Source: Sistotremastrum niveocremeum HHB9708
Lineage: Eukaryota > Basidiomycota > Agaricomycetes > Sistotremastrales > Sistotremastraceae
Assembly: GCA_001630475.1 (NCBI GenBank)
Contig: KV419442.1
Span: 110,727-174,726 of the forward strand
Direction: 5' to 3'
DNA: 64,000 nt
The notes under the pieces were generated by a model that had not been told where the DNA came from, searched no databases, and saw only the letters and a program-made list of their open reading frames with translations. Made by a program: the position numbers and the translations under genes. Of the stretch, positions 4,976-64,000 are shown piece after piece; the first letter of the stretch is position 1; each line of letters begins with the position of its first letter.

Positions 4976-7400
4976 TGAATTTCCTCGACGAAAGTGAAGA
5001 CGATCCTTCCAGAAAATGAAGAGCTGCTGATACCTCGTCATCTAGTCCATCTACACAATCAAGGAGACCCTTTGCTCAACGGATACCCCAATTTTGTCAA
5101 AGAAGGGATGAGTTGGCAGGACTCGCAGCTGATCGGGCTGAATCCCCTAATAAATTCAATCGAATTAATGCCTGTTCTGATCGTGAGTTTCTTGTTGCTA
5201 TCGGAACTGAAGCCGTCCTAAGCTCGATGGAAACCGACAGGCCTCAGCAACTGATGCGAATCCTATGTCATTATCTCCGGAAAGGACGTCGCAAAGCTAT
5301 CCTGTGGGCGATAACACCATCAGCATATCCGTACCCTATGCTGATCAGCGGGATGTCCCAATGATACAGCCTCAGATATTGGATACGCCAACGTTGTTCA
5401 CCGATCCAATGGCGGGACCTTCTCAATCCAACTTTGCCTACGCTCAGATTTCTACCACATATAACCTTAACAATTCTCTGCCAAAGCAACATGAGGCAGA
5501 GGCAGAAGAGAGCAACAATATCCTGCGAAAGCAACACGTAGCAGAGATAGACGAATTGAACGGTAAGCCTACTTATTCGTTCCCGTTTGGATGACTCGCT
5601 GATTGAAACTTCTTTTCTGAGGAGCTCTTTCCAACCACCTTAACGCGAATGCCAATGTGACCATGGAGGATCTCTACGAGGTATGTCCATCGGTGGTGAC
5701 CGATAATGAACGAACTGTCAATTGCGAGCGACTGACAATATTAATGTTGATCGTCAGATGTCCCGGTCGAACGGGCTGCATGGACAACTCTCGTCGGCAC
5801 GAAGTCCTGTGATGGCAGGACCAGCAGCTTCTTTATCACTGGCAACCGACATTGACATGGGAGGAAGGAGAGAATCAGGCGGTGGGCTGATGGCTGCGCC
5901 GATGCATTATAGCCCTGTTGTGAATGCAGATAACACGCGGCATCTCGCACCTGCATGGGGTACCGAGACTCTTCCGGACCAAACACCCGGTGCCGGTCCG
6001 AGCTCCTGCGATTTAAATACCGCAATTGTTCGTGCATTGTTTTCTGCGATTGATTGCCCAGAATATTAACTGCTTTTTTGCAGGACCTCCCTCGATTCGG
6101 AAGTGAAGTGATCGTTCCGAATGCCGACAAAGCATCCGGCTTCCCTCCGACGTCCCCGGAAAATTCGTCGAGACTCGCACCGCAGAGCAATGCTCTCGAA
6201 TCCAACAACGTTCCGGTTCTACCTGGTCAATTCAACTCTGTTTTTATATGCAGCGTATTTGGTTCACAGGAGAACTCGGCTGTTGATCCTCTACTCGATC
6301 TCTGGGCAACACGGGCGACTGAGCTGAAAGTCTCGCAGACCGTACTCCAGATCGTCATCCGCAGATTCCTGGGTGAAACCTATCTCCCCGAACTACAGGG
6401 TTTCGACTACTTGATCTCCTCCGAGCGAAAGAAATCACTCCTAATCGGCTGTAATTTATATCTTCCGCCCGATGATGGAACCCCAACTCGAGATCTGACA
6501 GATAGCGAAAAAGCTTTGTGTTTTGCTGCCCTAGGCGTTCTCAGTTTAAGCGCAGAGAGTCTAGGTAATGTATGTATCCCAATTCTGCTCCTATACGTCA
6601 CCAGACTGAGCGTTCTCTGTCAGGTCGGATATCACGCGCCGCTGATACAAGAATGCTTCAAATATTTGAACCCTGCTGCTGAACAATATAACAACGGGCA
6701 GATCGAAGATCGTATCCTTCCCCTCGCGATGTCAGAATATTTCTTTCCCTATCAGAACTTGATACTGACGACTTCACAGTGTTATTCTAGCGACGGCGCA
6801 CTTCAAATTGAAGGCAATGCAGGGGGACAACGACCAGACGCTTTATGCGACTATAGTTCTCCTCCAGCTCGTTCGAAATACAGAATACGTCGAGATGGAT
6901 TATCAAGACGTATCTGATATTGAGAACGTTCTTCATGTAAGCAAGCTCTTCTCTTGCCACTGGAGCGCAAAATTTCAACGAGAGTATCTAGCTGCCGCTA
7001 ATGGTCAACGATTCGACACTCATTCTCGATATGAGTCTCGGGCGCAAACAAAAATTGATGCCAAAGGGCGATTATGCAAGATTATTGCGACGTCATCGCC
7101 GTGAATTGGCAAAGGAATTGAAGTCTATCCCGATGATCAGCAAAGCCGGCAAAGGCGAAGACAAACAGACCCGGATCTTGTTCCTGGCGAGACTGGTTCA
7201 AGCCTGTATTCACCATGCATACGTGAGTATATCATTGTTATCCCCTAAGATATTGAACAACTCACCCGACATATCAGTGGGATGCACTTGACGCGCAAGA
7301 CCCCGGTGCAGATGAAAGATTCAGTGACAGAATGAGCAGACTCTATGATCTATTACGCTCGTCACAATGTGGAGTTCATCTATCACCTTGGTTATTCTGA
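4976..7400 (+). CDS. GFD-family protein, copy A (unknown function)
   Basis: Function unknown; member of the multi-copy family seen six times in this window. Residues near the middle (KQHEAEAEESNNILRKQH) look like a short coiled coil. They are followed by a low-complexity segment and then the family's all-helical C-terminal region: VSQTVLQIVIRRFLGE, LPELQGFDYLI, and ILFLARLVQACIHHAY, then an intron and WDALDAQD. Supported exon joins include an intron of about 70 nt from 5562, one at 5681-5757, one near 6034-6083 and one ending near 7277. The stop is at 7398-7400. The family relation rests on the GFD motif, on the QxxxHxxxW block and on an intron placed exactly before that Trp in all copies. 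The 5' end is not solved: the ATG at 4976 meets a stop after 14 codons, and the open frame that follows is in another phase, so either a very short intron or damage lies there. Confidence 0.6.
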
Positions 7401-8779
7401 TAGGACTATCTCGAAGATGTTGATTTCGTGTCCAGAGTGAAAATTTGTCTTGATCGAGAGCCCTAGCTGAGTCCATGTTGTTTCTAAGATCCAAAAGTGC
7501 CCCGCACCAGTACTTCGACGAAAGGACTTACCGGGAATAAAAGGAAGAACGACATCAGGATATACCCCTCGGGCTAGATAGGAGCTCCATGCATGCAGTC
7601 GGACCCAGAAGAGATATATATCACAATCAAATACTGTTAGTTCCACGAATCAGCTTGTGAATAATGGGGGTATTTCCTGGTTTAAGATCAGCGGAACCCA
7701 GTCGCGAGCCCAGGAACGTACCATGTTCGTGTCTCGGCACTGTATCCTTGAGTTACAAGGTTTTCACTCGATCAAATATCTGCAACGATAACTTCGAGAT
7801 CAGCTTCCAAGCTGCGTGTTTACTGGTAACACAACTTACGACCGATTGAGTGACTTTTAATGCCCGTGCGAGTGGGTACTCCTTAAGCACACATATGTGT
7901 GCCGAGCTCTGACAACTCAGTTCGAATGGCTTATTTTGATTGAAATTAGAGAGAGTACGTACCGAACAAAATTGCGTCGTCGTTGATTGATTTCATGAGA
8001 TGCATGGTGCACGACTCGGGCCTCGAGGCTCAAAGCCACCACTGTATTTCACTGCTCGGGACCGCTTGCTTCATGATTCGGCGCCGCATCACTTAGTCTT
8101 CCTATGTCAGACACTCACATTAAAGCAATATGCCTACATGGAACGAACGTTAATTTCGTCGTCAAATAACTAAATAACGAAGCGCCTTTGACGTGCCTTC
8201 TTACCCCTGAAAGCTTGTCCTACTCACCAGCGTCAAAATCTGAAAAAAATGGTCATCTAATCAAGAGAGGATATCTCTTCAGGAGAACAGAGAGAGACAA
8301 CGATTCTTCCCCCAATGGCTCGAAGTCAAGAAAGCAACGGACTTCCGAACTTCCGACCCAACACGAGGCAAGCTGAGATGTCATCTCTTTTACGCAACGC
8401 ACCCACGCTCGTCGACGTCGATATGCCCATCTGCAAAACAGAACCTGAGAGCCAACTCCCATACGAAGCCTAAATTGCCTCTTCTCAGATCACAAGACAG
8501 GCACTCAGGCACCCTTTTTTCATATCGGCTGGTGACATCCTGCTCATGCTTTGCGGAAGCTGACGCCATTCTTCTACTCGGTTCCACAATCGATAATCAT
8601 ATTGTTATCTTGGAGAACCTCTAGGCCTGGTGTGAATGCGAATGGGAACTCTGCTTGATAGTTAACCCTGGGGAGTCCTTAAAGCCTTCGAAATTTGGAA
8701 AAGTCGCGGATCTGTCCTGATCTCTTGAACCCACCTTTGACGATCATCTGAGTCCTAGTTTCCGAGTCTTAACGCTACC
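7401..8779. other. intergenic, no gene recognised
   Basis: Short open frames only (an 84-codon minus-strand frame at 7392-7646 overlaps the end of copy A). No domain, repeat or RNA gene seen. Confidence 0.4.
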
Positions 8780-24271: not shown

Positions 24272-24832
24272 TTGCTGCCCTACGCATTCGTGTGGTGCCT
24301 TACGAGAGCCCTTCAGGAAGAGCTTTCGAAGAAGGAAGCTTGGGCATTTCTGCGAAGACTTTTTATCTTCAGACACTTCCAGGGGCCCTCAAACTCAAGT
24401 GAAGTTGCCTATGTCGATCTGTCTTTAATATTTCAATATATGAAAGTAGTCCTTGGTCGATACCGATTCATCGAACGGGTATCAATGATAAAGGCCTTTT
24501 GCCGCGCATTTTCAAGCTACGGAGCATCGTTTAAATGGTCAGGAAATGTCAAATCCCAAAACAAAGTCGACCAAAAATTAATTTTTCATATACACGCTGG
24601 GGTGTTTGACGAGCAGATCAAGGAAGGGAAGGTTTCTAAGCCAGGGGAACTGGTAGATGCTTACTCAGCCGCAACATGTATTTTGGCCCTTTTCTGGATC
24701 ATCGAAAAGCACTTAAAATCACACATAAAAAAGGATCTCGAGAGGTACAAGCTCTGCACCAACGTTCGAAATCGGCTGTGTATGGAAGAACAATACACTC
24801 GTGGTTACGCTTACACACGCTCGGCAAGCTGA
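24272..24832 (+). CDS. 186-codon open frame, unknown, doubtful
   Basis: A single uninterrupted frame, unusually long for random sequence here, with mixed helical composition (EELSKKEAWAFLRRLFIF, AATCILALFWIIEKHLKSHI). No domain recognised and no clear introns. It ends inside the block that is duplicated upstream of GFD copies B and F, so part of it may be promoter rather than coding sequence. Confidence 0.25.
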   Translation: MLPYAFVWCLTRALQEELSKKEAWAFLRRLFIFRHFQGPSNSSEVAYVDLSLIFQYMKVVLGRYRFIERVSMIKAFCRAFSSYGASFKWSGNVKSQNKVDQKLIFHIHAGVFDEQIKEGKVSKPGELVDAYSAATCILALFWIIEKHLKSHIKKDLERYKLCTNVRNRLCMEEQYTRGYAYTRSAS

Positions 24833-24910
24833 GTTGCAACTTGACGACTTCAACTTGTCCTCTACCTCTCCCAGCCAGGATCGCTCGAGGTCATCGATTC
24901 ATTGTCTCTG
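24819..24910 (+). promoter_or_regulatory. putative core promoter of GFD copy B, shared with copy F
   Basis: A 17-bp word GCTCGGCAAGCTGAGTT starts 92 bp before the ATG of copy B. The identical word starts 96 bp before the ATG of copy F (62797). Similarity continues more weakly down to the start codons. This shows that duplication carried the promoter along. Its regulatory role is inferred from position. Confidence 0.5.
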
Positions 24911-27101
24911 ATGGAGACGTATTTCGATAACGATATGGACCTGCTTTGGTTGAGGAACAAAGTCGCGCACCAATTCTCAGACCCAGCACGCAATGACGCT
25001 GCGTATCACGACAGTCAGTCCGTCAGCGACTGGGAGTCGGTTTTGCATAGCGTAGATATGAATCAGAGACAGAGCGATGTGAGTAATGTTCAAAGAGTAA
25101 AGGTTGACACCAGACCTGACGCGTTGGCCAGCTTTCGAATTGGGATACTGAGCTTCACACACCGTTTTATCAATACCCTCCCCCAAATCTCCCAACTGAA
25201 CCGCCCCTCACCAGTATCCTAACATCATGGATACACGAAAATTCGCCTGTATTCGAGGATTTGAGAGTGGACAACACGATCCATCCTCATCCTTCACAAC
25301 TGGCGGACGTTTCCAGCGTCTGCCAACACGAAACAATGTACAATGCATTGCCCACGATCCGTGTGGCAGAGCAAGTCCCCCAAAGCCGAGAGGGGAACGA
25401 TTTGCAGAGAGAGTTTGTCTGGACGGACGATGTCTCCGGTGAGTGATATCAGATCGTGTCACGGAAGAGTCCCTTTTAAGCTCCTTCACCGCAGAAAATA
25501 TTAACGGAAATAATCGGTATCCGGAACTCTTCCACCCTCATCGATCTGATTACGATCACGCTTATGATCAAGTCTGTGCGAACGGGCCATCATCTCTTTC
25601 CGTAGAATACCGTCAAGGGTACTATGACGATTCTCGGAATAACGCCGGCTGCTGCTTCTCTGATGGAACGCAGACGCAGTTGTTCGGTACGCGTTCCCTT
25701 TTTGAAATTAGGCTTGATATACTGATAGTCAGTGGCAAACACTCGGATCTAGCTCCATCTCATGATTTCGCTCATCCGATCGTTCCCGATGTGGCGCTCA
25801 TCTCGCTCGAAGATCTCGTCCGGTCCGAAAGACAACGCCGCGGAAACCAGGTAAGCGGTTTATATATCCGGAGAAGAATATGCCTTCATTAAATCTTGAC
25901 AGGCGTTCCGAGAGCAAGAATCAGGCGAAGGGTACCTCGAAGTCGCCTTGCGAAATTTCTCTGCTCTGGTTCGGGCCTCCTTGGGGCATGCAAGATCCAG
26001 CCTCGTTCAGCTGGAGGGTCCGTATTTCATGGTCGACACGCCACCAGTCCTACTCTACTACGCGAATCGAGTCCAGGAGGTCGTCCAGATATATTTCAAT
26101 ACTTCGTGCCTCGATGTGCTTCAGGGCTTCGATAATTTCTTGCCTCCCGGCCTGATGTCGACGTGCCTTTCTTTCCTTGGGATTGTGAAGCCAGACCACG
26201 GGGCGGAAGTTGACGGTCCCAATCCTTCTCAGTTAGCCATCGCGATGATAGTTCTGGACTTCATTGACGTCTCGAACGCTCAAACTGCACGTTTTCGTCG
26301 TGGTCATGCTTTATTTCCGATCGCTTACTGGAGAATACGTTTCTAGGAAAACTATTCTGCTGTCTTCCTTTGTGCAGCACTCGAATACCTAGAATATGCG
26401 TCCCATACAAGCGAAATTAGAGCTGACCCGGACTTCCTCTACGCGGTGTATGTATCTCATCTCGGAGTTCCGCTATATTACTGACATGGCGGATAACAGA
26501 TTGCTCTTGGGATTGCGTAACATCTATCATCCGTCGAAGCCTGCCATCTTCCGATGCATGTTGCCCATTGCGTCGCAGCTCCTCAAGGCACAACGTGCAT
26601 TCTTCTCCGAACCTTATGATGAGGAGTTCTGTTTCTCTGCTCAGCAATTCGGCGAGATGCATCTATTCTTTCACGATGCTATGATGATCGTCGCTGCTAC
26701 TTTCGGTGCTACGGACCGGCCGCATGGAAAGAATGTCCCAGCTATGCATTACGGGGGCGAAGCTCATTTACGAAGCCTGAGTGCTATCCCGAATGTAGCG
26801 CACGATCCTCGGACTCGGATAGCATTACTGTTTGCTATTAGAGCAAGACAAGCATTTCTCCACCTTCGCTACGTGAGTGTTCAATGCTGCGCGCCTGTCC
26901 TCACCACTCATATTTTCTCAGTGGTGCACTGAAGGCGGTCATTATCGAAAAATTCAGGAAAAAGATTTTCAACGTCAATTGGGAGAGGTGCAGAAGGTAG
27001 CTAATCGCCATCTTCCCAAGTTATGGCCCCAGTGTCTGCATGAAGGTCGTGACTGTGTTGTCAAAATAGTCTCGGATCGTCAGGTCATCGTGTATGGTTG
27101 A
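24911..27101 (+). CDS. GFD-family protein, copy B (unknown function)
   Basis: Unknown function. Exon 1 (24911-25080) starts METYFDNDMD, and copy F starts MESYLTGGMW. A 53-nt gtgagt intron leads in frame to LSNWDTELHTPFYQ, paralogous to LSYYTHND...HPFYTPF in copy F. Later parts: VALRN-type helix (YLEVALRNFSALVRASLG), VVQIYFNTSCLDVLQGFDNF, SQLAIAMIVLDFIDV, LLLGLRNIYHPS, IALLFAIRARQAFLHLRY, then an intron and WCTEGGHY, and a stop at 27099-27101. No signal peptide, membrane segment or known catalytic motif. It lies directly upstream of copy C on the same strand, but the two belong to different sub-types, so the pair is an old tandem. Middle exon borders were placed by eye. Confidence 0.65.
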
Positions 27102-27616
27102 ATGTCTTAGGTATACTACCGCTCCAAGTCTCTTTTCTTCTGGGTTCATCGTAGGATCAGGCTTCGTTTGCGGGGGTGAAAGTAGACACTTGGGTTGGAA
27201 CACAGATTTCGTTTTTGCACTGGCAGTCCTCGTAAACTTCATATTGTTCCGTTCGCAAGCTTTTTTTGGTTCTCTAACGTACGAAACCTAAACGGCTATC
27301 CCACTGTAGTGGGTTTTCATGGTGAATTGATCAATCTGAGGCTGCCGTTTCCTATAGCCCAGACCAGATGAATGTTCATTCACCGGAACACTCAAATTAA
27401 TGCTGAGCCCGTGAGAAGCAAGGCTTCAGCGGAGAATCCCATCGCGTAGCTGAGTTTGTATTTACTCGAACCAAACCATTGTCCCAACCGCTCCCCCACA
27501 AGTGGGGTGATGCATCATAGCATGGAGGGCTCGTCCCTCACAGGTCGTCAGTCTATCTGAGATTTCTGTATGAATAAATCGCTCATTGGAGGCCGGTAGC
27601 TGATTCTTCCGGGAGG
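27102..27616. other. spacer between GFD copies B and C
   Basis: No gene seen; a short hairpin (CCCACTGTAGTGGG) lies near 27300. Holds the 3' end of copy B and the promoter of copy C. Confidence 0.35.
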
Positions 27617-29904
27617 ATGGAGGGTGAGACTGGTGTCGAGGATACACGTCGTCGCCCCTGTGGAATAATGACGGAAAACGAGCTGACAAGCGGTTCGAAA
27701 CTACGGGAGAGAGACTGCGAGGAACTAAGGCCAACTCACCAAGACTTCTATGTCGATCGCACGGTACGTGGCTTGGTTTGAAGTGCTTGGGAGATATTCA
27801 GGCCATCGTTCAGGTTGACGCCTTGCGCAGTCGAAGTTATCGAGACTTGAGAGTCAGTGTCTATCATTTGGAAATGCGAAGCGTTTCTTATACTTTATAC
27901 TCATCGCTGTCTCCCTCACTTATCCAGCCCCTACCCACCACGCACTATGTTTCCCCTGCGATACCGTTGCCCCACCCACAACAACTGACGAGCTCTGCGC
28001 TCAGACAAGACACTGACAATTCATTGCCTGCCTCTCGCCTGGCAGACAAGCGTCATGAACGGCGCTCCAATGCCTCGCATCCCTATCATGACCAATTGGT
28101 AGTGATAGACATGCGAAAGCACGTACACCCGGGCAAATTCCGCAAGGCTAAAGGTGAGTACGAAGGTACAGTTATCACTATGCTTGACTCTTATATACTG
28201 CTGCCATAGATCAGAGCTCCACGCCCTCAGACCGGCAGAAAGCGCGTCAGCGTCGAAAAGAAGTCCCAATGCCACGTACTAGTAACACCGGGGAACACTA
28301 TCGACAACACGTATATGAACAACTTCGGCCCGATGATTTGCAGGTGAGCTTTTCATCTCCCTTCTCTTGATGACAGTCGATAATCAAGCCCATGCACGTT
28401 GCTAGTCAGCAAATGTTCATCTCCGGACCGCGACAAATCATGCGGATCCGCATCGGGCCCTCCTTCCGGCGTATCCCACAACGGCTCCAAATTCTTCTTC
28501 AATACCTGCCACGGAACCCATCAATGGCAATGTTGGTATTTTTGTCGTTGTCGTGACTAGTCTGATTTCTCGAGACAGAACCTGCAATCCCTTGCCCCGC
28601 TCTGGAAGACTGGTGCTGTTATGGTTCCGCACCCTCCATGCCGTTACTGCAATCCGGATCTCTGTCTTCATCACTCCGCAATTAACACCTCCACCCCTTA
28701 TGGCCCGTTTCACGAGCTCTTAACACTCGCACGATTGAACCTTGAAGGCTTACATTGCGAGGAACCAAGTCCTATAGGCACTACGACTCTCGATGCCGCT
28801 TTTCACCCGGTGTCGACGATTGAGAACGCAAGGGTTGTTCAGGTCGTGAACCTGTACATTGAGGCACGACACCTCGATATGCTCCACGGTTTCGACTGTG
28901 CCGTTCCTCAAACATATATGATCGCTTCGCTGGTGGCATTGCGATTACGGGGCCCAGCTTCAAATATAAAGCCTTCCGAAGAATCACCTCCCTCTGACAG
29001 TCAACTGGCCGCTTGTCTAATCGTTTTGGATATTATCGATATGTTCCTCGGATTTCAAGACGTGAGTTCATAGTTCTCTGATCCTTCGAATTCAGTTCCT
29101 GAATGCTCCACTTTCTAGGGTGCCTATTCCGGATTATTCCTGCAGGATGCTATCGAATGCTTAAGACGTGCGGCTCGATGTACTGAATCGAAGTCAAACA
29201 CTACCTTTCTTTATGCGCTGTAAGGCCTCTAGATTCCCTCATGATGTTTTCTAATGCAATTTTAGCCTTCTCATTGGCGCACGTAATATCTACCGCCCTG
29301 CTTCGGAGAGGAACGCATTGCTTCCTATATGCAATTTAGCCGCTGAGCTTTGGAAACACGTCCCAAGGCAGCATTTAAAACCAGAGTCTCTGACCGCTAC
29401 TCAATGGCGGGGTCGAATTATAGTAAGGCTCTCACTCTTCTCCTCGTGAATCGTGAGGTATCACTTCTGATTCATCCTCGTTTCAGACTATGGCAAGATT
29501 GAAGGATGCTTTAACGATTGTCCGGGGAAGTCTCGGTGCTGGACAATTCATTCCAAATCCAATCTGGACCCAGGCCATCGCGAATGACTATCTAACGAAT
29601 CTCGAGGGTCTTGTTCATCTCTGGAAGGATAAGAACAACCCTCGAGATCGGGCATTCATCGTGTTAATGGCAAGAAAAACGCAAGTGGTAATTCATAACG
29701 TCTTCGTAAGTCCTTCAATTTCCTTGAAAATAACACTCTAATCTTCTTCGTCGTCAGTGGCAAGCAATTTTTACCAAAGACGCACAATCCAGACCCGCGG
29801 AAGACATTGGAGAAGTACATTGTCAATTCCACGAATGGATACAGAAATTAGTGGAGCTGATGAGAGGATGTGAGATCGAAATGGCGCCGTATTACTTCCA
29901 CTGA
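27617..29904 (+). CDS. GFD-family protein, copy C (unknown function)
   Basis: Best-resolved member, about 550 residues in roughly nine exons. Exon 1 is 27617-27763 (MEGETGVEDTRRRP). After a 164-nt intron comes a basic segment SLPASRLADKRHERRSN; then EHYRQHVYEQLRPDDLQ; ANVHLRTATNHADP; a short Cys/His motif PCRYCNPDLCLHH; and the helical core VVQVVNLYIEARHLDMLHGF/D, QLAACLIVLDIIDMFLG, GLFLQDAIECLRRAAR, LLIGARNIYRPASE, RAFIVLMARKTQVVIHNVF, then an intron and WQAIF. It ends APYYFH. The basic N-terminal part followed by a helical core recalls a transcription-factor layout, but no known DNA-binding domain is present, so this is only a suggestion. Copies D and E are its closest relatives. Confidence 0.7.
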
Positions 29905-45924: not shown

Positions 45925-45952
45925 CTTCCGTCCGGCCCGGCGTTCGGAACTC
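45925..45952 (+). repeat. 25-bp recurring motif, copy 4 (degenerate)
   Basis: TTCCGTCCGGCCCGGCGTTC followed by GG; two small insertions relative to the others. Confidence 0.4.
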
Positions 45953-46681: not shown

Positions 46682-48072
46682 TCAGTGGAAGTGATTCGGT
46701 GCGATTTCGATATCGCATCCTCTCATCAGCTCCACTAATCTCTGCGTTCATGGAATTGACGATGTACTTCTCCGATGTCTTCTGTGGGCTCGTATGGGAC
46801 ATCGTTCTTACAAAGTGAACGTCACTGATGACTCGAGATTAGAAATTTAGAATTGTATGTCGGTGGAAGACGAAGGACTTACGAATACGGTGTGGATCAC
46901 GGATTGTGTCTTGTCGCACTTATCAGGATCCATGCCTGACTTCGGGGGTTGTTCCTGTGGTCGGAGAGATGCACGAGATCCTCGATTGGTCGGTAGTCGT
47001 TTGCGAGAGCTTCAGACCAAACCGGATCTGATGGGAATTGTTCGAGGCCGAGACTTGCGCGAATAATGAGGGAAGTGCTATCTTCCAACCTTGCTATGAT
47101 CTGAAAGTGAGAATTGATTTCAGACGACGACCTACTGAACGAATTTTGAGAAACCCACTAGTCATGGAAACGACCAAAATACCAACCGTTCCATGAGAAT
47201 CAGGCTCCGGCACGGATATTCTCGAGCAAGAATATTTCGATACAATGTTAGAATGGACAGATCCGCACGATCAGTTGCGATCCGGAGATGAACTTTCGCG
47301 GACTACCGAGGTTGAGAATCGACCATCAGGAGCAAGAGATGAATCTCTCACCTGCAAATCATCGGACCGAGGGTGTTCATAGACATGCTGGCGATAGTGA
47401 TCTCCGGCGTAACGTGAACACCGTTAGCTCGTTTCGATGCTGAGATGGGTTTTGTAGATCTGAGGGCACGGAGCTCCGATCTGTGGAACAGGTATACAAG
47501 GATCAAGCGTGTAGGTATGTCTGCAGTCGGACTCACCCTTAGCCTTGTCATATTTCCCCGGGTGTATCTGTTTTCGCATGTTCAGTATCACCCGGGTAAC
47601 CGGGGTAAGTTGATGGTGTCAGGGATGCGAAGAATTGGAGAGCCGTTCTTGACGCTTGTCTGCCAGGCGAGAGGCAGGCAATGAGTTGTCTACTTTTTGT
47701 CTGAGCGCAGAACTCGCGAGTGGTTGTGGGAACCGTGTCGACGGAGTAGGGGTGAGGGTTGCGCTAGGGAGTGGGGAAAAGTAGTTTGGATGGGCGGAGG
47801 CTGCATTTGTGAGGGAGACAGCAATGAACATGATGAACACTTTGGTTTGAAATAGGGTAGACACTAACTCTCGAGTCTCGATGGTGAGAATCATGCTCAA
47901 CATCAACCTGATCCTCAGCCGGAGTATTTGCGAAGCGAAGGACGTCAAATCAAGCCACGTACAGGGCCATCGACCTTGCCATCGATATCCAAAGGCTCCT
48001 GGCTTGAACGGTTTTCCTCCATTGGTCCAGAGTATTGACGACATGTATCCTTGAGCCCAGCGCTGAGGGGTC
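46682..48072 (-). pseudogene. GFD-family copy D, broken tandem copy of E
   Basis: Related to copies C and E from the first exon region (GLKDTCRQYSGPMEE) through SALRQKVDNSLPASRLADKR to the tail. In the second exon an insertion brings a stop after LSNSSHP. The next exon is out of frame (VPRY-like GDHYRQHVYEH remains in another phase). The start ATG of the relatives is missing. The whole core from the Cys/His motif through GFD to the RNIYRP helix has been deleted: sequence passes straight from the end of the ANVH exon to the exon with ARLEDSTSLIIRASLGLEQF. The last exon is shifted too. N-terminal DNA is still roughly nine-tenths identical to copy E by eye, so the duplication is young. Same strand as E, 345 bp downstream of its stop. 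Confidence 0.8.
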
Positions 48073-48416: not shown

Positions 48417-50725
48417 TCAGTGGAAGTAATAAGGTGCAATCTCGACGTCGTATCCTCTCACGAGCTCAACCAATTTCTGCATGCGATCGTGGAATTGGCG
48501 ATGCAGTTCCCCGATATCTTCCGTCTGCTTAGCTTGTCCTTTCTTGCTAAAAAGTCCTTGCCACTGATGACGGGGAAGATTGGAAGTCTTATATCGACGA
48601 GATTTGACGGACTTACGAAGACGTTGTGGATCACTGCCTGCACTTTTCTTGCCATTAACAGGAGGAACGCCCTATCTCGAGGGTTGTCTCTTTGTTTCCA
48701 TAGGATCGCCAGGCCTTTGAGATTTGTCAAATGGTCGTTGGCGATGGCGTCGGTCCAAACCGGATTCGATATAAAATGGTCAGCGCCAAGGCTTGCGCGA
48801 ACGATGAGGATCCCCTGTTTCAATTTTCCCATGACCTGTGAGTCAAATCGATCAAGACAACGATCTACCAGGCGAAAATGGAATCTTACCATTCTTTCGC
48901 AACGCCATTGAGTAGCACTAAGAGAATTGGAAGTCAAATGCTGCTTCGAGACGTGTCCCCAGAGTTCAATAGCTAGATTACACAGCGGAAGGAATTCGTT
49001 TCTCTCGGAAGCTGGGCGGTAAATATTTCGTGCGCCGAGGAGGACGCTAAGATTGAGTTAGAAGACATCATAAAATGTTTTTCGAAGTCGTACAGCGCAT
49101 AAAGAAAACTGGCGTTCGACTTCAAATCAGTGCTTCGAGTCGCACGTGCCAAACATTCCATCGCATCTTGCAGGAATAGTCCGCAGTAGGCACCCTAGAA
49201 AGCCAAGCGTCTATCAATTTCGTTCGGGTAGTTTGGAGAGAAATCTGAACCTACATCATTGGATCCGAGGAACAGATCGATAATGTCCAGAATAACTAGA
49301 CAAGGTGCCAGCTGACTAACAGTTGGAGGCGGTTCATCGACACACTCATTTGGGGCCAGATCCCGTAATCCTAATACCGCTAGCGAAGAACTGATATACG
49401 TTTGAGGCATCACATAGTCGAAACCATGGAGCATATTGAGGTATTGCGCCTCAACGGACAGCTGGACAACCTGACGAACCCTTGCGTTCTCGATCGTAGA
49501 AACAGGTTGAAATAGGGCCTCGAGATTTGTATTGTCGGAGCTGAAGTTTGGATGACGTGAGTGGTCGAGGTTCAATCGTGCAAGTGACAAGATGTTGATA
49601 AACGGGTTATTGGGAGTCGCACTGTGAGGCGTGGCATGATGCGGAAGGGGATTCGGATTGCAATATCGGCACCATGGGTTCGGCACTACGATAGCACCAG
49701 TTTGCCATAACCTAGTGGACGGTCGCAGATCCTATTGCGGAGATCAGGCAAGGCATGACAATGTCCATAACGTGACACTAACCAGAACATCGATAGCAGG
49801 CTCCGCGACGGCCGTACGGGAAGAATATTCTGGAGCAGTGTTTGGAACCTTTGGCTGCGCCGGAACGAGGGCCGGTGGTGGATCCGCATGATTTGTCGCG
49901 GTCCGGGGATGAACGTTTGCGGCCTGGCAATGGGTATGGGGTTGAGTATCAAGCTTCGTCAAGAGAAGGAGATGAACAACTCACCTGCGAATTCTCGGGC
50001 CGAAGTTGTTCATACACATGCTGGCGGTAATGATTTCGGCTGTAACGTGGCACCGCAACATCCTTTGGAGGCCGAGGCGAATTCTCTTGGTCTGAGGGCA
50101 CGGAGCTCAGATCTATGACACCAGTATATAAGGATCAAGCATCCAGCTATCTGTGCAGTCGGACTCACCCTTCGCCCAGCGATATTTCTCCGGATGTATC
50201 TGCTTTCGCAGGTCCATCACTACCAATTGGCGTTGGTAGGGGTGCGTATGATTGGAGCGCCGTTCTTGACGCTTGTCTGCCAGGCGAGAGGCAGGCAATG
50301 AATTGTTTGATTTTTGTCTGAGCGCAGAACTCGCGAGTGGTTGCGGGAACCGTGTCGAAGCTGTCGTCGAGGTGAGGACTGCGCTAAGGAGCGGGGAAAA
50401 GTAGTTTGGCTTGGGTGGAGGCCGCGTCTGTGAGGGGAGAGAGCGATGAACATGATAAAAGGTTCAGATATACAGATTCAGAGACTGACTCCCGAGTTTT
50501 TGTGCTGTCGACCGTGATCAACGTCAACCTGGTCGGCAGCGCAAATACTTGCGAATAAAGTCAAACCGAGACACTTACAGCGCGATAGACACCCATATGC
50601 TCATAACTTTGTCTCACTGCTGCAGTGACTTCCAAGCAGTTTTTCTCGGACTGGTCTGAAACGTCTTCCTCCATTGGCCCAGAGGGCTGACGCCATGTGT
50701 TCTGGTGCCCAAAATCACCGTCCAT
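48417..50725 (-). CDS. GFD-family protein, copy E (unknown function)
   Basis: Intact member close to copy C, on the opposite strand and 20 kb away. It starts MDGDFGHQNTWRQPSGPMEE at 50725. Then come LASSALRQKSNNSLPASRLA and DKRQERRSN; YRQHVYEQLRPENSQ; ANVHPRTATNHADPPPALVP; WCRYCNPNPLPHH; VRQVVQLSVEAQYLNMLHGF then DYV; LAPCLVILDIIDLFLG; FLQDAMECLARATRS; LLGARNIYRPASERNEF; RAFLLLMARKVQAVIHNVF, then an intron and WQGLFSKK. The end is APYYFH, as in copy C. No signal peptide or membrane segment. All introns match those of copy C in place and phase as far as could be followed, including the acceptor after the pyrimidine run near 50405 that precedes the basic segment. Confidence 0.7.
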
Positions 50726-52907
50726 CCTCCCGGGAGAATCAGCTGTCGGTCTCGAATCAATGATTAATTTGTACAGAAATATCAGATGCACTGACGAGTC
50801 GTGAGGGTTGGCCCTTTCCCCACTGGTGGGCGAGCAATTGGTACAAGGTTTCGGTTGAAGTAAATACAAACTCAGCTACGCGCCCGCTCATGCACTTCAC
50901 GAAGTCAGCGCTTCGACCCAGGCTCTATCGATATCTGCTTGTCTAGCCTCAACTGTTAATGACTACATGCTCCCTAGAAATCAACTGTCGATCTTGCTAG
51001 CATTGGAATACGCGACTGCTTTTGCTGGGACAGCGCTAGCCTCGGAGACAGGGGTGCATCAGTCAATTGATCAACTTGACGTTCAACGGCACTACATCTC
51101 TTCTTTTTACTTCTTCACGACAATATGCTATAGACTGAACCAACTATCCTTCTATGGGGATATTTGAGAGGACCGCGATTAACGAAGACAGGCAAAACGA
51201 TGTTCTTATTCCCCTGGCTGGTTCTTATCTCTCGGTCCAGTTCATTATCTATCCTTTAACGACGATTCCGGCTATGCTTGATTACTTCATCCTGATTTGA
51301 AATCTGAGAACGGAGAACACAGCTTAGCCTCTGCGACGTCACTTCACGCAGTCTCATTCGAATTCTGTTATAGCTCTGCATCACCCTTGTGTTCGGGGCG
51401 CCCGGAACACCTCTTTCGATGACTTTTGGAGCCCGCTTAAGAACTGGTTTATTGGCGGATTCACTGTTGACATCTCTCCGAGCAACCCTTCAAATGACAT
51501 CAGAACTTTCCATGCGCCACCTAATAATATGCAGAGGCTCCCCCGGGCTCAGAATTCGACCTCGATATCGAATATGTCGGGCCAATAAATTGCTACGTCA
51601 CGCCCAGCTGAAATCGAAATGCCGATCTGGTATTTTGAACTCAGCTATCGTATGAAACAGGGGTGCAAGTCCGCTGTACCTGAGGCCGCCATGAAAGAAG
51701 TCCGAAGAACATATCCTGGAGTGGATCCCCCTGAATTCCCGACGCCACAAGATAAATTGAGGGCTCTCCGCGGTCGTGATGTCTTCAAGAGGCCGTATCT
51801 TCTTCAATTTTTTTCTTAAAAAGACATAGCTTATGGACATCGACGATTGGTGCGAGATCTCAGATTTCTTAAGTGGAGATTTCGCACCGGTACTAATCGG
51901 TTCTGCTATGCTACCTTTGGGGTTGGCATCGTGCTCTTTTTGGAGCCCGAGGCTGTGTCCACATCTTGGCCCGGAGCCTTCCTGCAGGATGTCGAATTGT
52001 CCTAATGGTCTGCTCATCGTACGTCAAACGTCCTAGAGCATCATCCGAGGTCAACGGTCATTATTCTCAATTCGTGATCACATCATCCTTCCAGCTTGAC
52101 TCGGTACTCTACCGGCTTTGTCTTGTATCGATACGGATGGGTGACCAAATTTCTATTGCGCCCCCATTCCAATTGAGGTTAGCCTATGCGCCGTCATGCG
52201 CACTCGAACGTCGTGAACCCTTGATGTGCAATTACAGAGATGTCAACGAACCAACGGATGTCAAGGGGAAAGGAGAGTCTTCTCGTAAGCTTCCTTACAT
52301 CGGCAATGCCCTGCGTTATCACTCTGTGAGGGAATCAGCCTGGTCTCCAACACCCATCCGTATTCTTCTGATTTCAATGATAAACTACGAGTGATGCTCA
52401 TTCCAAACAGTTCTGACTCCAAGGCTTTCGGATTGCCAACGACGTTCTGCTATTCTCGAGCGTCAAACTTGAGTTCCCGCCGAGCCGGCCCTGACTGATG
52501 TCAGAAATAGATCAAGATGAGCGAGCTGGCTTCTAGACTAAGGCTAGTTTCTACCAGATCGCCGGTTCAGCAGCAGGTCCGTCTGGGCGGATCATGCCGC
52601 CCTGGACTGAACCTACGGCTCAAGGATTTCGCCAAAAAACGGCGGAAGTAAATTCCTCTCCGCATTGAGGACGAAGGCGCAATTGAAAACAGACTATGTC
52701 CTGAAGATCTGATTTATTGACAGGTCACATCATAGAGATGGAGTCGACTACTTTCGGATAGGCTCTGGGAGTGGATACAAACGACCCTGCAAATGCCTTC
52801 GATTTGATACCCACTCGAAAATCTAGTCCAAAATATCGCTCCCAACTTGGAGCTCTCTGGACCTCATAAGACGCGCGCTTGGCTATTGCTCTGTTTCTCC
52901 AATCAAC
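50726..52907. other. intergenic with unrecognised short frames
   Basis: Three consecutive plus-strand frames (51619-51819, 51833-52036, 51966-52394) might be parts of a decayed gene, but no chain of introns or domain could be established. No RNA gene or repeat seen. Confidence 0.35.
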
Positions 52908-58209: not shown

Positions 58210-58535
58210 TCTGACTAGGAGGGTGTCGGATGTAATACGAACTATAGTGTTCGAACGAGAAGAGCGGGATAGTTGGGGTCGGAAGGTCGATGTTCGAACA
58301 CGAGTAGTCAAGCTGAAACGCTCGCTGAGTATAGCGCTGAATACTCATGCTATATCACGACGGCCCGATGCTTCGCTCGCGTGTCATCAGATAACCGCCT
58401 GCCGATACCGAAGAGCACGTTGAAGATTCGGAACTTTGACACACAACGCATCGGATGACAACGGGTCAATTATTTCCAATCGAGTAAATTCAGAAACATG
58501 ATCGATATCTCGTCCAAGTAAAGTCCAATTTTCCT

Positions 58536-60865
58536 TCAGGCCCAAGCCGTTTTGATAATGTCCGCGCTTCTCTCGGCGAGGGCATACACCGTGGCTTCGG
58601 TGTGTCCAGGCACAATGAACGGCTAAAAATAGAAGCATAAGGATAAGGATACAACGCCGGGGAATTTGAAAGAAGGAAAGAGTATTCAGAATCCGAGAAG
58701 GGTGACCCAAAAAATGAAATTTAACAAGACGATACTCACAAAGACACTCGCGTCAACGACTCTTAACTTGTCCACTCCTTTCACCAAAAGTTCATTGGTG
58801 ACTACCCCGTCCTCGTTTGCCCCTACACCCTGCATGCGGTTCGTGCCGGTAGGATGCCATAATGTGACAGCATTATTGCGAATGTATTGGATGATTTCTG
58901 CATCCGTGTTCGTATTTGCGCTATCAGGGGCTAAGCCGAGGTTGAATCCCTTCCATGATTTCTCAGACATGAATTGTTTCGCTGATTTGAAAGCTAGGAG
59001 ATGGAGGGTGACGTCATAGTCGGAGGTGAGGAATCCTGGGTCGATGAGAGGGAATTCGAATGCGGAGGGCGAGTTCAAGACGATGGAACCACCTGGTGGA
59101 GTCAAGTTATTAACGTGTGAGGAAGGGGGGACAAGGTGGACGTACGTGATGCAGGAGCGACGAGAACCTGAGTCAGGGTCACAAAATCCCCGGTAGGAGG
59201 TGCAATGGCAGTAGGGAGGAAGCTAGCCCAGATGTCCTGTCCATTCATTCAGCCCTTCACCTCATATGACAAGAGTGAGAAGTACGTACCGACCATAGGA
59301 ACTCGTAATGCGCTGATTTCGGTCCGACGCTCGAATCCGGAAATTGCTGGAAGAGACTATTGTTCGATGGAACTCTGAAGAATCCAATCGTGTCAGACAC
59401 CGTATCCACCAGAGGACCTTCGCCTTCGTCAGCGTATTCTTCTTCAGCGACTTCCAATGCAGTTGCGTTTTCTCGAAGTTGGTCGAGGGACTGTGGAGCG
59501 TTTACGGAGAAGTGGTTGAAGACCGCAGGATGATCGATTAAATTTTGACCGACTTGTGTGCTGCTCACGACGAGCGGGATGTTGAAAGCATTGAGCTGCG
59601 CAGGAGGGCCGATACCGCTGAGCATGAGTAGCTGGACGGAGCCGATTGCCCCACCGCAGAGGATGACTTCCTTCGAAGGCTTGACTGTGAAGGTTGGCGC
59701 TATAGATGACGCCTCAAGACAAGAATAAAGTGCATCAAGAAGCGGGCACATACCGCCAGGCCCTGCTGAGAATGTAACGCCTATTGCGGCCGGTGTACCG
59801 TGCGACGTTGAGAAGAGGACTTTCGTAACTTGCTGTTGTATCAGGACGTGGAGATTTGGTCGCGATATGAACTGCGGTGCGAGATATGCTACTGCCGAAC
59901 TTGCACGGACAGTATCATTGATGGATGCCTGAAGCCAGCCTGTCTCAATCGAAGATATTATGAGAATCACGTGATCGAGATACGAAGTCGAATAAGTCGA
60001 ATAACTCACCGACGCCTAGTTGATCGCCGCTGTTGACGTCGAGGTTGAATTTGAAGTCTGCGTGGTCGACAAAGGTGGTGTTGATCACTCGTGAACTTAG
60101 TTCGCTTGCGAAGCCTGAGAGGGATACGGAGAGCGGTCCTGAGAATCCGTGCACGAGTGGATTGAATTGGCCGGTGGTGTTATGGTGGTCGGCAGGCGGT
60201 GTGATGGTTTCTAACTAGGCGCGAGTCGATAAGGTGATTAAGGAGACGATGGATTGAATTACCTTCTTAAAGTAAGGTAGCATGGAGATCCATGACCACC
60301 CAGGATCGCCAGACCACTTTGCGATAGCATCCCAATAATCCGATGAGCCACGAGTGTAGATCATGAAATCTGGTACTGATTGAGAAAATATATGGCTCAT
60401 GATAAAGAATATCTCACTTATTGAACTTGATCCTCCAAGAAGCTTGCCACGCTGATAGGCCATCGATCGGCTGTTGAGGGCCTTTTGAGGGACAGTGGTA
60501 TACTGTTGGGATTTCAGTTGCAGAAACGAATAGATCACGGCTTCTCGTACATTCCACGTCCATGGTTTGTTCGGGGATGCATCAGGGCCAAGGAAGGGCA
60601 CACTGACGTCCTCGATTCCCGCGTTACTACAAAGATGGGTGATGAGTTTCCTAGTTTCAATCATTCGGTAGAGGACGCACTTGATCCCAGCTTCAACCAC
60701 CAATATCTTCCAGTTTGAATTTTCGGACAGTCGATTGGCGACGACATTTCCTGCAGTCCCGCCTCCCACGATCACAAAGTCGTAATCGGTCGCGATTTTT
60801 GTAGGGTCGGTTATAATGATCGCGTATACGCATGCGAGGAGTGTAGAGATAAGAACAAAACGCAT
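58536..60865 (-). CDS. secreted GMC oxidoreductase (AA3_2-like), copy 2
   Basis: Tandem paralogue of the preceding gene. The signal peptide MRFVLISTLLACVYA leads to DYDFVIVGGGTAGNVVANRL. Then [66 protein letters not shown] and DHPAVFNHF. The catalytic region is LWHPTGTNRMQGVGANEDG (first His), ending PFIVPGHTEATVYALAERS (second His) and stop. Intron positions match copy 1 wherever both could be read. In both copies the usual Asn after LGGSS is replaced in the spliced joint (SSSI-D-F/Y-M), as in some aryl-alcohol-type enzymes. The start at 60865 gives the shortest clean signal peptide; in-frame ATGs at 60871 and further upstream are possible. Confidence 0.9.
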
Positions 60866-62796
60866 GGGCATCCGTGGTTGAAGCATGTGAAGCGGACGGA
60901 GTCGGGGGCAGTGGCCCAATGGTATCGACCACTGGGTGCAGAGACCAAAGCTCGAGAGCATCCTTATGAATGGACTCTGCTTTAAGGCATTTCTATTATT
61001 ATTTTCAGTATGAGTTTCATCAAGGCTTTACACAGTGCCGACCTCACTTGAGACTACAACATGCACTTGATGGCGGATCGTGGATCAGTACACCTTGAGA
61101 AGAAGGGTGGGGAGTTGGAGGCGGTGAACAGCGGAAGACACATGATCTAAATCCGGAGAATAAGAATCCAGGTTCCGTAGTTCTTGCAACTCCTCTCGCA
61201 AGAGCGTATTCGTGCCTAGTAGCGCGACGGCAGTGACTGCATTCTTCAACATGCTCGTGAGGAACAAGATCGCGCCGAATGCCATAAAACGGAGGTATCG
61301 AGGCCACAGCTCATATTCATTTGTCAACAGACATCGTTACGAGCCAGAATTCGCCAGTTAAAGGTAGATCATCTCATGTAGCTGATCCGTCCAACGAGTG
61401 CGGCGTCGGCGGTGAAGGCTATTTGGTCGTATTTGTATCTTCGCTCTCCCACCGCTGGCTCGACGACACTGGTTGGCTCCGACGGTATCTGTTACTGAAC
61501 CTTACGGTAGAGAGTAAAGATGCCACGAAAGATGTCCTCTGTTCCTGATTTTATCGACAAACTCTCTCAATCTCAATTGCTTGGATCTTTTGACACTCAG
61601 CGACTTGTTGCATATGCCGTAGCTCAATTACGTCTCGTACGATCATCAGCATATCTCAATTTCTTTTTTCGGCCACTGCGAGGAATGGTTCTCTGTTTAG
61701 CCGGGTTTTTCTCCACCAATGAATCGTACACGTTCTCAGGCACGCACGAGATTTCCTAGACACTCGCCCCAGAACGGCTTCTTCGAAATTTCAGGAGACC
61801 CTCAAGCTCTCAACTTAAGGTCTGTAGTGTGAAGAGCTCGTACCGTGGCTACTCGCTTTCTAAGGATCCCCAACATGCAAACTGAGATGCCAGCGCGTGA
61901 CGCGACATTATCGAACACGAACGGATATTCATATTATACTCGATATTCTACTCATCGCACCTCCTTTACCTTGTTCTGCTCGTATGATCTAGCATCTCTA
62001 CATGCTTGGCGCTTCTGCACAATTGTTCACAGCCAACAGATGCATGTGTTGATCGATGCTTTGGGGAATTAGAAGAATGTTGCGACGCTGCCTCAGCTCA
62101 GGTTACATCAGAACTTCATGACCGTGTGGTGCGTTTTGGAAACCCCCTTCTCACCCGTGAGGTCACAGAAGCATTAGGATCTCGATTACAAGTTGGTTTC
62201 TATTCGCCTTGGGTGCGGAGCAGGACGATGTTTATTCGATTCAAGGAATTTGCTAAACTGGGTGTGTTTGCTATTCAAAGTGCAGCTCTGAGTGCTCTTT
62301 TCTCGTTCAAAGTTCATAGAAAGGATTTATGAACTGGAGAGTTTTTCTCTAGGAGAAAAGTACGGACATTCCGAACGCACATAGAACCGAGCTACATCAG
62401 ACAGCTTCTCTATTCGATGTTAAGGAAACGAACAAACAGGCTTCGAATATGCTCCATCGGACAAGTCTTCGTTGACTCAGGGCTCGCTTAGAGATGATCC
62501 CCCGGGAGATGCGAAGCTCTACGAGAAGCTGCTACTTTAAGTTTGTCGAAATGATGTTCTTTCTCTCCAATGAAATGTTCGTCATATCCGTCCTATTCTT
62601 CGATTGTGCGCTTGATTGTTCGCCCTTGTCGTCGAACGAATATGTCGAACTGGATTGTAAACCACAAGCCCAATAGTGCCCACGGCCATGAAATATGTCC
62701 AAAGCTCTAGAAAAAGGATTCGTCCTGAGAACTCATCGAATGAATTGTGATTCACCTTTTGCTTATACTCGAATGAGAAACAATACGCTTAGTCCC
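60866..62796. other. intergenic with unrecognised short frames
   Basis: An 80-codon minus frame (61085-61327) has one hydrophobic helix (FMAFGAILFLTSMLKNAVTA). A 108-codon plus frame (62006-62332) has no domain. Neither could be extended by splicing, so none is called. Confidence 0.35.
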
Positions 62797-62892
62797 GCTC
62801 GGCAAGCTGAGTTACAAACTGAACAGGTTGAACTCGCCCTCCACGGTGCTCGCCCAGCTTCAGGGTCACTGAGCCAGTGAACGTCGTTCAAG
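62797..62892 (+). promoter_or_regulatory. putative core promoter of GFD copy F, shared with copy B
   Basis: Begins with GCTCGGCAAGCTGAGTT, identical to the word 92 bp before copy B; here it is 96 bp before the ATG. Confidence 0.5.
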
Positions 62893-64000
62893 ATGGAGTC
62901 TTATCTCACAGGTGGTATGTGGTTCTTTCTTGTGGCGCTGTTCGCGAAACGACGAGTCGCAGGCCACGGCCATCTGCAGAACACGAACTTCCAAGGCGAC
63001 GAACGAGGAGCGTCGTTTTACCAACATATTGGGGCTGGTTTTAGTCAGTTTTCTACTTACGTCCGTGATTTCCTGTTCATCAATTAGGTCCTGTACCACT
63101 AATGCAAAGGGCTTTTATCAGAATCCGGCAACTCATCTAATGTTCTCTCCCCTTCCCCCTCCCTCCATACCTCCACAGCTCCCCGTGGACGCGACGATGG
63201 CTTCCGCGTTGTCTTATTATACCCATAATGACATCAATACGGAAACGGGTCATCCCTTCTACACACCTTTCGTTGACGTGGAAGACGATATGAACGTCTA
63301 TCACCAACAAAACATGAACAATATACTGCCCACGGATCGTGGGACAGAGCAGGTCATAGAGAAACCAGCGAGAAGATTTTTCGAGATCGATGGCGTCTCT
63401 AGTGAGTAAACTGCCTCTCATGGATTTCTTCCCTCTTAAATCTCCCGGCAGTGAATAATATTAGCGGAGTTGGTCGCGAACCGGAATTCAGTAGCGAAGC
63501 CTTCGTTCCGGACTGGTCGCCACCTCATCCTGCCACTAGAGGTGAGTACGCTCGCCTCTCGGAGCAAGGAAAGGTGTACAGCTCGAGCAGCTGGAATCCG
63601 CATGTACATGGTGAGAGCTCGGTTCTTATCGAGATGGATCTGTCGCGCTGATGTTTGGCCCGATGATGGGTGGTTAAGCTTCGGATCTGATTCCGGGAAA
63701 TTACTCCGCGGGATCAATCATTCCCAAGGCGGCACCAACTTCATTCGAGCAGCACGTCCGGACCGGACGCAGATGCACGTCTCAATCCGAGCAATTCACT
63801 GTCAGTGCCGCTCTGGCTTCGCTCGTATCGCATTGTTCATTTCATTTTCTCTTCAGATACTTTCGGAACAAGGGGAGCCGACATTGAAGCATTCATTACG
63901 CCATCTGGGGTCGCTGGTTCGCGCGGCTTTGGACAATGACATCGACCCCGAGAGCATCCAGCAGGCCGCTGGATTCGAACATCAACAAAGATCGGCATCG
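62893..64000 (+). CDS. GFD-family protein, copy F (unknown function), cut by the window edge
   Basis: Paralogue of copy B. It starts MESYLTGGMW, and the exon reads on through FQGDERGASFYQHIGAG. After the intron(s) before 63177 come ALSYYTHNDINTETGHPFYT, MNNILPTDRGTEQV, then an intron and VNNISGVGREPEFSSEAFV (copy B: ENINGNNRYPELFHPHRSDY). Near the edge are SLRHLGSLVRAALDNDIDPE and QQAAGFEHQQ, matching ALRNFSALVRASLG in copy B. The helical core with the GFD motif must lie beyond 64000. Reading frames inside are open apart from introns, so it looks intact as far as seen. Confidence 0.6.

What the first reader, a model, noticed from the sequence alone, without database searches (positions are those of the whole stretch)
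4976..64000. Six copies of an unrecognised helical protein family in one 64-kb window
Copies A (4976-7400), B (24911-27101), C (27617-29904), D (46682-48072, broken), E (48417-50725) and F (62893 to the edge) share an LxGFD motif, a VLDIID-type helix, an RNIYxP helix and a QxxxHxxxW block with an intron exactly before the Trp. Three sub-types are visible: A; B and F; C, D and E. The N-terminal halves differ (coiled coil in A, basic SRLADKRxERRSN and a CxxC/HH motif in C and E). I know no family of this shape. The mix of conserved core, variable head, tandem copies and decay is what fast-evolving accessory families (regulators, recognition proteins, selfish or defence genes) look like. A transcription-factor-like role is only a guess.
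Basis: partly seen in the sequence, partly recalled or inferred. Interest (0 to 1): 0.82.

Follow-up and report, generated by a model that had tools for sequence, protein, structure and literature searches.

The report
Seventeen-copy orphan protein cluster near telomere
A fungus carries at least seventeen related genes of no recognised protein family in one chromosome-end region, sharing gene structure, a short head motif and often a promoter element; they may encode regulatory proteins, but their job is not yet known.

Summary
The window lies on contig C49 (238 kb) of a 34.7-Mb fungal genome. Seven protein queries gave 78 match rows (self-matches included), all on C49. Splice-aware models show a shared gene plan: a 101-nt second core exon in 9 of 12 copies, and an intron directly before the Trp in 9 of 9. 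Three sister pairs show dN/dS 0.21-0.34 (purifying selection); D is broken. Six of seven close pairs are inverted. New here: a ten-residue head motif (NxLPxxRxAD/E) in 12 of 17 copies, and a promoter element with core AGCTGAGTT before 8 copies, its longer form about 70 times denser on C49 than elsewhere. Pfam, NCBIfam and PDB sequence searches name no family. A resemblance to the Fungal_trans domain does not clearly beat shuffles (5 of 200 score as high). The structure attempt failed (pLDDT 38). Best reading: an old subtelomeric family of probably nuclear regulators. The family is near certain; its function is inferred. Markers of known mating loci lie on other contigs.

The parts
4976..7400 (+). 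Copy A (sub-type A/G2-G5). Core exons 6084-6569, 6624-6711, 6791-6936, 6992-7222, 7278-7400; head exon borders not settled
   Evidence: splice-aware models; genome search
24911..27101 (+). Copy B (sub-type B/F), 602 aa as hand-spliced. Core exons 25903-26268, 26347-26447, 26500-26872, 26922-27101; acidic head
27617..29904 (+). Copy C (sub-type C/D/E), 593 aa as hand-spliced. Core exons 28580-29061, 29119-29219, 29266-29422, 29487-29705, 29758-29904
46682..48072 (-). Copy D, pseudogene: stop in the head exon, about 0.9 kb of core missing relative to E
48417..50725 (-). Copy E, inverted duplicate of C. Core exons 49731-49255, 49194-49094, 49046-48890, 48835-48617, 48563-48417
62893..64000 (+). 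Copy F (sub-type B/F), head part; core lies beyond the window at C49:174766-175618
24822..24835 (+). Promoter element CGGCAAGCTGAGTT, 75 bp before the ATG of B
27443..27456 (+). Promoter element of C, CGCGTAGCTGAGTT, followed by a TATA-like stretch
50869..50882 (-). Promoter element of E, CGCGTAGCTGAGTT
62800..62813 (+). Promoter element CGGCAAGCTGAGTT of F
5472..5501 (+). Head motif of A (NSLPKQHEAE)
25342..25371 (+). Head motif of B (NALPTIRVAE)
28018..28047 (+). Head motif of C (NSLPASRLAD), followed by a basic run
47658..47687 (-). Head motif remnant of D (NSLPASRLAD)
50275..50304 (-). Head motif of E (NSLPASRLAD)
63320..63349 (+). Head motif of F (NILPTDRGTE)

Best explanation
This is an old family of proteins of about 600 residues (two copies, B and C, spliced in full). 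Each has a long low-complexity head that in most copies carries one conserved ten-residue motif, and a conserved, probably all-helical C-terminal core of about 300 residues. The family grew by repeated local, mostly inverted, duplication inside one subtelomeric region; no copy was found elsewhere in this genome. These DNA facts and the purifying selection are shown. The mechanism is inferred: the proteins most likely work as nuclear regulators (transcription-factor-like or cofactors). Acidic (B) or basic (C/E) heads would contact the transcription machinery or DNA, and the core would serve as a dimerisation or regulatory domain. A shared core-promoter element, in several copies next to a TATA-like stretch, would switch at least eight copies on together.
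For: 78 of 78 match rows from seven queries lie on C49. Shared exon plan. dN/dS 0.25 (C/E), 0.34 (I/J), 0.21 (K/L). Head motif in 12 of 17 copies; the strict pattern has 7 matches in the window against a mean of 0.14 in 50 base shuffles. Promoter element: 8 of 25 genome matches of the longer form lie on C49, 0.17 expected. Heads of B and C are 60-62% disorder-promoting residues, net charge -24 in B. Basic runs follow the motif in C/E and H. A telomere-like repeat lies at the C49 end.
Against: No DNA-binding domain found by Pfam in full B, full C or an A head piece. Profile comparison with six Fungal_trans segments of the same genome gave probability 0.4%; 5 of 200 column shuffles scored as high. 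The fold is unknown: the one model has pLDDT 38.2. Basic runs are missing in B, F and K. One core helix of C and E reaches a 19-residue hydropathy of 1.83, above the usual 1.6 mark for membrane helices (mark recalled), though A and B stay at 1.42-1.47, so a membrane role is not fully excluded. The promoter element was not found before A or G1-G6. Genome-wide the longer form is not over-represented (25 matches, 37 for the reversed control); only its density on C49 is. Both patterns were read off the copies before counting.
Confidence: 0.4

Rival explanations
1. The core is a very diverged fungal transcription-factor middle homology region (Fungal_trans, PF04082) that has lost its zinc-cluster head, so the copies are true descendants of zinc-cluster factors.
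For: Order of helices looks alike by eye. The hhalign local hit (FLQDAIECL...LYALLLIGAR against FLERALSRL...IQASCLLATYFF) falls in the register expected from that reading. A Fungal_trans gene lies on the same contig at C49:205756.
Against: Probability 0.4%; 5 of 200 shuffles score as high (shuffle mean 12.4, maximum 20.9, real 17.6); the reversed profile scores 15.4; the global mode aligns only 2 columns. No PF04082 hit in 15 core members at E up to 5. The neighbour gene in L050 scores 24 against the family profile, about the level of unrelated strands.
Confidence: 0.2
2. Ordinary subtelomeric amplification of a protein with a metabolic, stress or other non-regulatory role.
For: Subtelomeric place; neighbours are duplicated too: exonuclease-like genes near E and beyond F, two GMC-like genes.
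Against: No enzyme or binding family matches. Long charged low-complexity heads are unusual for enzymes (general knowledge). The promoter element is kept over saturated divergence.
Confidence: 0.25
3. A self/non-self recognition or compatibility locus: linked, ancient, divergent paralogues kept together by selection, as in mating-type or S-locus clusters.
For: All matches linked, saturated divergence between some sub-types, inverted pairs, no unlinked copies found.
Against: Markers of the known basidiomycete mating loci are elsewhere: peptidase M3 (MIP-type) on C14, STE3 receptors on C13 and C35. No homeodomain found by Pfam in full B, full C or an A head piece. No second haplotype was available to test polymorphism.
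Confidence: 0.1
4. Selfish or defence genes (meiotic driver, killer or transposon-borne).
For: Multi-copy, decayed copy D, chromosome-end location.
Against: No spread to other contigs (78 of 78 rows on C49). Purifying selection in three pairs. No mobile-element family among the ten window ORFs scanned; the rest of the window was not scanned. A padloc search was not made.
Confidence: 0.05

Closest known systems
Fungal_trans / middle homology region proteins (PF04082)
   Same: Helical C-terminal domain after a long low-complexity head; similar helix order by eye (recalled, not a test).
   Different: No zinc cluster found; no convincing profile match; own motif LxGFD invariant in 15 aligned copies.
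Subtelomeric lineage-specific gene families of fungi (as a kind; recalled)
   Same: Local copies near a chromosome end, with decay and segmental duplication.
   Different: Old divergence inside a single contig with no unlinked copy found; mostly inverted duplicates interleaved with unrelated genes; a shared promoter element in four sub-types.
Basidiomycete mating-type A locus (homeodomain gene pairs; recalled)
   Same: Linked, anciently diverged paralogues.
   Different: No homeodomain found in full B or C; the MIP-type peptidase marker is on another contig.

Membership tests
Fungal_trans (PF04082) | Match to the Pfam model over its cut-off | tested here: not met
   0 of 15 core members at E up to 5; full B and C none; the same model has 31 matches in this genome, 30 over the cut-off
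Fungal_trans (PF04082) | Profile-profile similarity above chance | tested here: not met
   Probability 0.4%; 5 of 200 shuffles score as high. Small alignments (15 and 6 rows), so a weak test
Fungal_trans (PF04082) | Same fold | tested here: inconclusive
   Model of the first half of the core has pLDDT 38.2; no fold search was run
Zinc-cluster transcription factors | C6 zinc cluster in the head | tested here: not met
   No Pfam zinc-cluster hit in full B, full C or an A head piece; C and E carry CRYCNP..HH only. Heads of the other copies were not scanned
bZIP factors | Basic region plus leucine zipper | tested here: not met
   No Pfam bZIP hit in full B, full C or an A head piece; heads of the other copies were not scanned
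Mating-type A locus | Homeodomain genes next to the MIP-type peptidase | tested here: not met
   Peptidase M3 matches only on C14; no homeodomain hit in full B or C; homeodomain genes elsewhere were not searched
Mating-type B locus | STE3 receptors and pheromones | tested here: not met
   25 STE3 match rows, all on C13 and C35; pheromones not tested
Lineage-limited subtelomeric family | Copies confined to a chromosome-end region | tested here: met
   78 of 78 match rows on C49; telomere-like repeat at its end
Lineage-limited subtelomeric family | Absent from other fungi | not testable with these tools
   The sequence collections held are viral, prokaryotic, phage, plasmid and metagenome ones; none is a fungal genome collection

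The most novel reading that the evidence does not exclude
The cluster is a previously undescribed recognition or regulatory supergene of a basidiomycete: an anciently diverged, physically linked set of paralogous regulators of a new fold, held together in inverted pairs and driven by one family-specific promoter element, perhaps a further compatibility locus.
Probability: 0.1. Interest if true: 0.85.

Novelty: new variant of a known kind. Interest (0 to 1): 0.45.

Why it matters
If right, it adds a protein family with no named Pfam, NCBIfam or PDB sequence match, probably regulatory, and a clear case of a family that diversified for a long time inside one chromosome-end region with no copy found outside it. 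The shared promoter element and head motif make function directly testable: one element predicts co-regulation of at least eight genes, and one ten-residue motif predicts a common partner.

Tried and rejected
Contiguous pieces of E, C, B and A (first half of the core) were used, with intron 1 read through in frame (TAG read as Q at the 3' splice-site codon of C, E and B, and at one further TAG inside C's intron; none in A). The model was unusable (mean pLDDT 38.2, pTM 0.24), so no fold search was run. (a piece of B) was translated and not used.

Fungal_trans homology: suggestive by eye, set aside as unproven.

Mating-type locus: MIP-type peptidase and STE3 lie on other contigs.

Degenerate bZIP basic region in the head motif: considered from memory; Pfam gives nothing.

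Upstream element as a coding exon: its DNA can be read as RxAE, and in F it lies in a 35-codon upstream ORF. The nine core bases are the same, third codon positions included, in 8 copies of four sub-types, and the frame is stopped in H, so a DNA element is the better reading.

Literature: five answered paper searches showed nothing on this family; one search had no hits, and one search listed 10 of 24. Of papers I saw search listings with the starts of abstracts, plus passages of PMC10100673.

Rows left out of counts: G6 (same modelled protein as G1) and D were left out of the tree and of alignment A2, and D of the models. The head-motif count of 12 of 17 uses two patterns: the strict one finds A, B, C, D, E, F, G3, J, K, L; the looser one adds G2 and G5. 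H and I have degenerate forms and are not counted; G1, G6 and G4 gave none. Not counted as copies: the upstream ORF of F, and one hit in 42 kb of other contigs.
Full report
What the window is. The window is C49:110727-174726 of a genome of 34,710,156 bases in 111 contigs; C49 has 238,472 bases. No fungal sequence collection was on hand.

Is it real. I wrote a small splice-aware profile aligner, starting from an alignment of C, E, B and A. It returns cores without stops for A, B, C and E (rechecked), agreeing with hand-made models, and core models for F, H, I, J, K and L outside the window. G1 and G6 are modelled over three exons (the last a fragment), G2-G5 over one exon only; D was not modelled. 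The second core exon is 101 nt, entered in phase 0 and left in phase 2, in B, C, E, F, G1, G6, H, I and J: 9 of 12 copies modelled that far, of which G1 and G6 have identical DNA and are not independent. It is 104 nt in K and L and 88 nt in A. The intron directly before the Trp is present in 9 of 9 copies reached (A, B, C, E, F, H, I, K, L). LxGFD is invariant in 15 aligned copies; the other motifs drift between sub-types. These are shared gene plans, not chance motifs.

How many copies and where. Seven protein queries against the whole genome (A, C, B, I, G1, K, G3; E-value limits 0.001, 0.1, 1, 1, 1, 10, 10) gave 5, 18, 14, 16, 8, 12 and 5 match rows: 78 in all, self-matches and repeats of the same exons included, every one on C49. 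The tool scores only its best candidates, so the count is a lower bound. The rows resolve into 17 copies. In C49 order with strand and approximate kb of the core start: G1+ 1.6, G2+ 6.9, G3+ 9.6, G4- 17.1, G5- 51.0, G6- 56.3, A+ 116.8, B+ 136.6, C+ 139.3, D- 157.4-158.8 (whole), E- 160.5, F+ 174.8, H+ 179.9, I+ 182.5, K+ 184.9, L- 189.7, J- 192.4. The right end of C49 carries a 12-nt repeat whose 26 matches in this genome all lie at contig ends, so the cluster is probably subtelomeric, its last copy about 45 kb from that end. More than half of C49 outside the window was not fetched; there the absence of further copies rests on the seven queries.

How it grew. DNA comparison shows inverted duplicate blocks. 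C49:1-8340 matches 57893-49554 (G1/G2 against G6/G5): identical over about the first 4.7 kb, 92-99% to about 5.7 kb, then 64-78%. G3 matches G4 in pieces at 68-76%. C matches E over 2.7 kb at 69%. I+K matches J+L in pieces at 65-77%. D is a direct neighbour copy of E that keeps head and tail but lacks the middle. So six of seven close pairs are inverted. An LG tree of the first 210 columns of 15 core sequences (G6 and D left out) groups H/(I,J) at 0.994, B/F 0.989, C/E 0.985, K/L 0.984 and A with G2-G5 at 1.000. Several rows are short fragments, and the place of G1 is not resolved (0.000).

Selection. Nei-Gojobori values: C/E core, 363 codons, dN 0.25, dS 0.99; I/J, 216 codons, dN 0.19, dS 0.57; K/L, 258 codons, dN 0.18, dS 0.84; H/I, 218 codons, dN 0.34, dS 2.03; B/F, 224 codons, dN 0.46, dS saturated. 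Ratios of 0.17-0.34 mean purifying selection on the pair as a whole; A, G1-G6 and D were not tested. A head exon of C/E (59 codons) has dN 0.18 and dS 0.35, ratio 0.51, so constraint on that exon's protein is weaker. Its low dS hints at nucleotide-level constraint or gene conversion.

Two new features. First, a head motif. N-x-L-P-x-x-R-x-A-D/E or close variants occur in the heads of A, B, C, D, E, F, G3, J, K and L under a strict pattern, and of G2 and G5 under a looser one: 12 of 17 copies. H and I carry degenerate forms; none was found for G1, G6 or G4. The strict pattern has 7 matches in the window against a mean of 0.14 in 50 base shuffles, and 1 match in 42 kb of other contigs. One of the 7 lies in a short ORF upstream of F, not in a head. 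Second, a promoter element. AGCTGAGTT occurs 5 times in the window against 0.43 expected (0 of 100 shuffles reach 5); four of the five lie just upstream of B, C, E and F. The longer form SGNWAGCTGAGTT has 25 matches in the genome, 8 on C49 where 0.17 is expected, about 70 times the density elsewhere. The reversed control pattern has 37 genome matches, so the element is not over-represented genome-wide; the excess is local to C49. Six of the 8 precede B, F, H, J, K and L; the other two (C49:18111 + and 162364 -) have no copy assigned. C and E carry the core with CGCGT in front, and I a two-base variant. In H, I and J the element runs straight into TTTATAT. It was not found before A or G1-G6 in the stretches scanned; a partial form, GCTGAGTT, lies on the strand of G4 at 17703. 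Both patterns were read off the copies before counting, so the contrasts are descriptive. Inverted duplication explains the likeness within pairs, but not across four old sub-types.

What it is not. Pfam gave no family above cut-off for full C (best Drf_FH1, E 0.16), cores E, A and B, full B and an A head piece, or the 15 core members (one stray match to one member, E 0.19). NCBIfam gave none at E up to 1. PDB sequences gave one designed helical protein at E 0.94. The family was compared with six Fungal_trans segments from the same genome: probability 0.4%, score 17.6, reached by 5 of 200 column shuffles (mean 12.4, maximum 20.9); the reversed profile scored 15.4. The aligned helices are those one would expect, so the link remains a lead and nothing more. 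Peptidase M3 sits on C14 and STE3 receptors on C13 and C35, which speaks against a classical mating locus.

Mechanism. B (602 aa) and C (593 aa), spliced by hand, have low-complexity heads (60-62% disorder-promoting residues; net charge -24 in B, +2 in C) and a core of neutral mean hydropathy. One core helix reaches 1.83 over 19 residues in C and E, above the usual 1.6 mark (recalled), but only 1.47 and 1.42 in A and B. A buried helix of a soluble core is the simpler reading, and a membrane role is not fully excluded. The failed model draws helices only, below pLDDT 50 throughout, which is weak support at best. Acidic or basic heads, basic runs after the head motif in C/E and H, and a common promoter element fit a set of co-expressed nuclear regulators best. 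I rate this reading at 0.4; each step from soluble to nuclear to regulator is inference. What is shown is the family, its confinement as far as searched, its selection in three pairs, the motif and the promoter element.

Novelty. Clustered chromosome-end families are a known kind (recalled). The variant here is the combination: great age, confinement to one contig, mostly inverted copies, and one promoter element kept across four old sub-types, in a protein family that the libraries searched do not name. Absence from print rests only on five answered searches of an open-access library, none of which could name the family.

Noticed in passing
C49:238361-238472 (L090), and ends of C25, C27, C41, C43, C53, C71, C77, C81, C88: A 12-nt repeat TTAGGTTAGCGG: 26 of 26 matches (up to 2 mismatches) lie within about 150 bases of a contig end on ten contigs, with outward-fitting strand; the reversed control gave 0. 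It looks like an unusual telomere repeat. PMC10100673 (passages seen) reports TTAGGG for most of the 21 Basidiomycota it resolved; TTAGGTTAG is not in its main text. The tool skips very common words, so inner copies may have been missed.
   Followed up: partly
C49:1-8340 against 57893-49554: Inverted arms identical over about 4.7 kb at the contig start, 92-99% to about 5.7 kb, then 64-78%. Either recent conversion or an assembly join at a repeat.
   Followed up: partly
window 52908-54121 and L039:2776-3462: Two 3'-5' exonuclease-like genes, one near E (Pfam hit) and one beyond F (alike by eye, not scanned), suggesting that block duplication took neighbours along.
   Followed up: no
window 54900-61000: Two adjacent GMC oxidoreductase-like genes, direct duplicates at about 65% DNA identity; only one was scanned with Pfam.
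   Followed up: no
window 39777-41850: ORFs with several GATA-type zinc fingers in a row by eye (one Pfam hit in the ORF scanned), within serine-rich and repetitive sequence.
   Followed up: no
window 51638-51646 (-) and C49:18111-18123 (+): Two further copies of the promoter element with no family gene assigned to them; possible relics or other genes.
   Followed up: no
window 62773-62880 (+): A 35-codon upstream ORF before F whose peptide resembles the head motif and overlaps the promoter element.
   Followed up: partly
window 27976-28152 against 50170-50346: The head exon of C and E has much lower dS (0.35) than their cores (0.99), as if conserved at DNA level or converted.
   Followed up: no
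C49:205756-206139 (L050): A Fungal_trans gene on the same contig, about 12 kb beyond the last copy; it does not match the family profile above background.
   Followed up: partly
window 11554-13962: Adjacent similar protein-kinase-like fragments; one was scanned with Pfam.
   Followed up: no
C13 and C35: 25 STE3-type receptor match rows (exon by exon) on two contigs: several pheromone-receptor-like genes.
   Followed up: no
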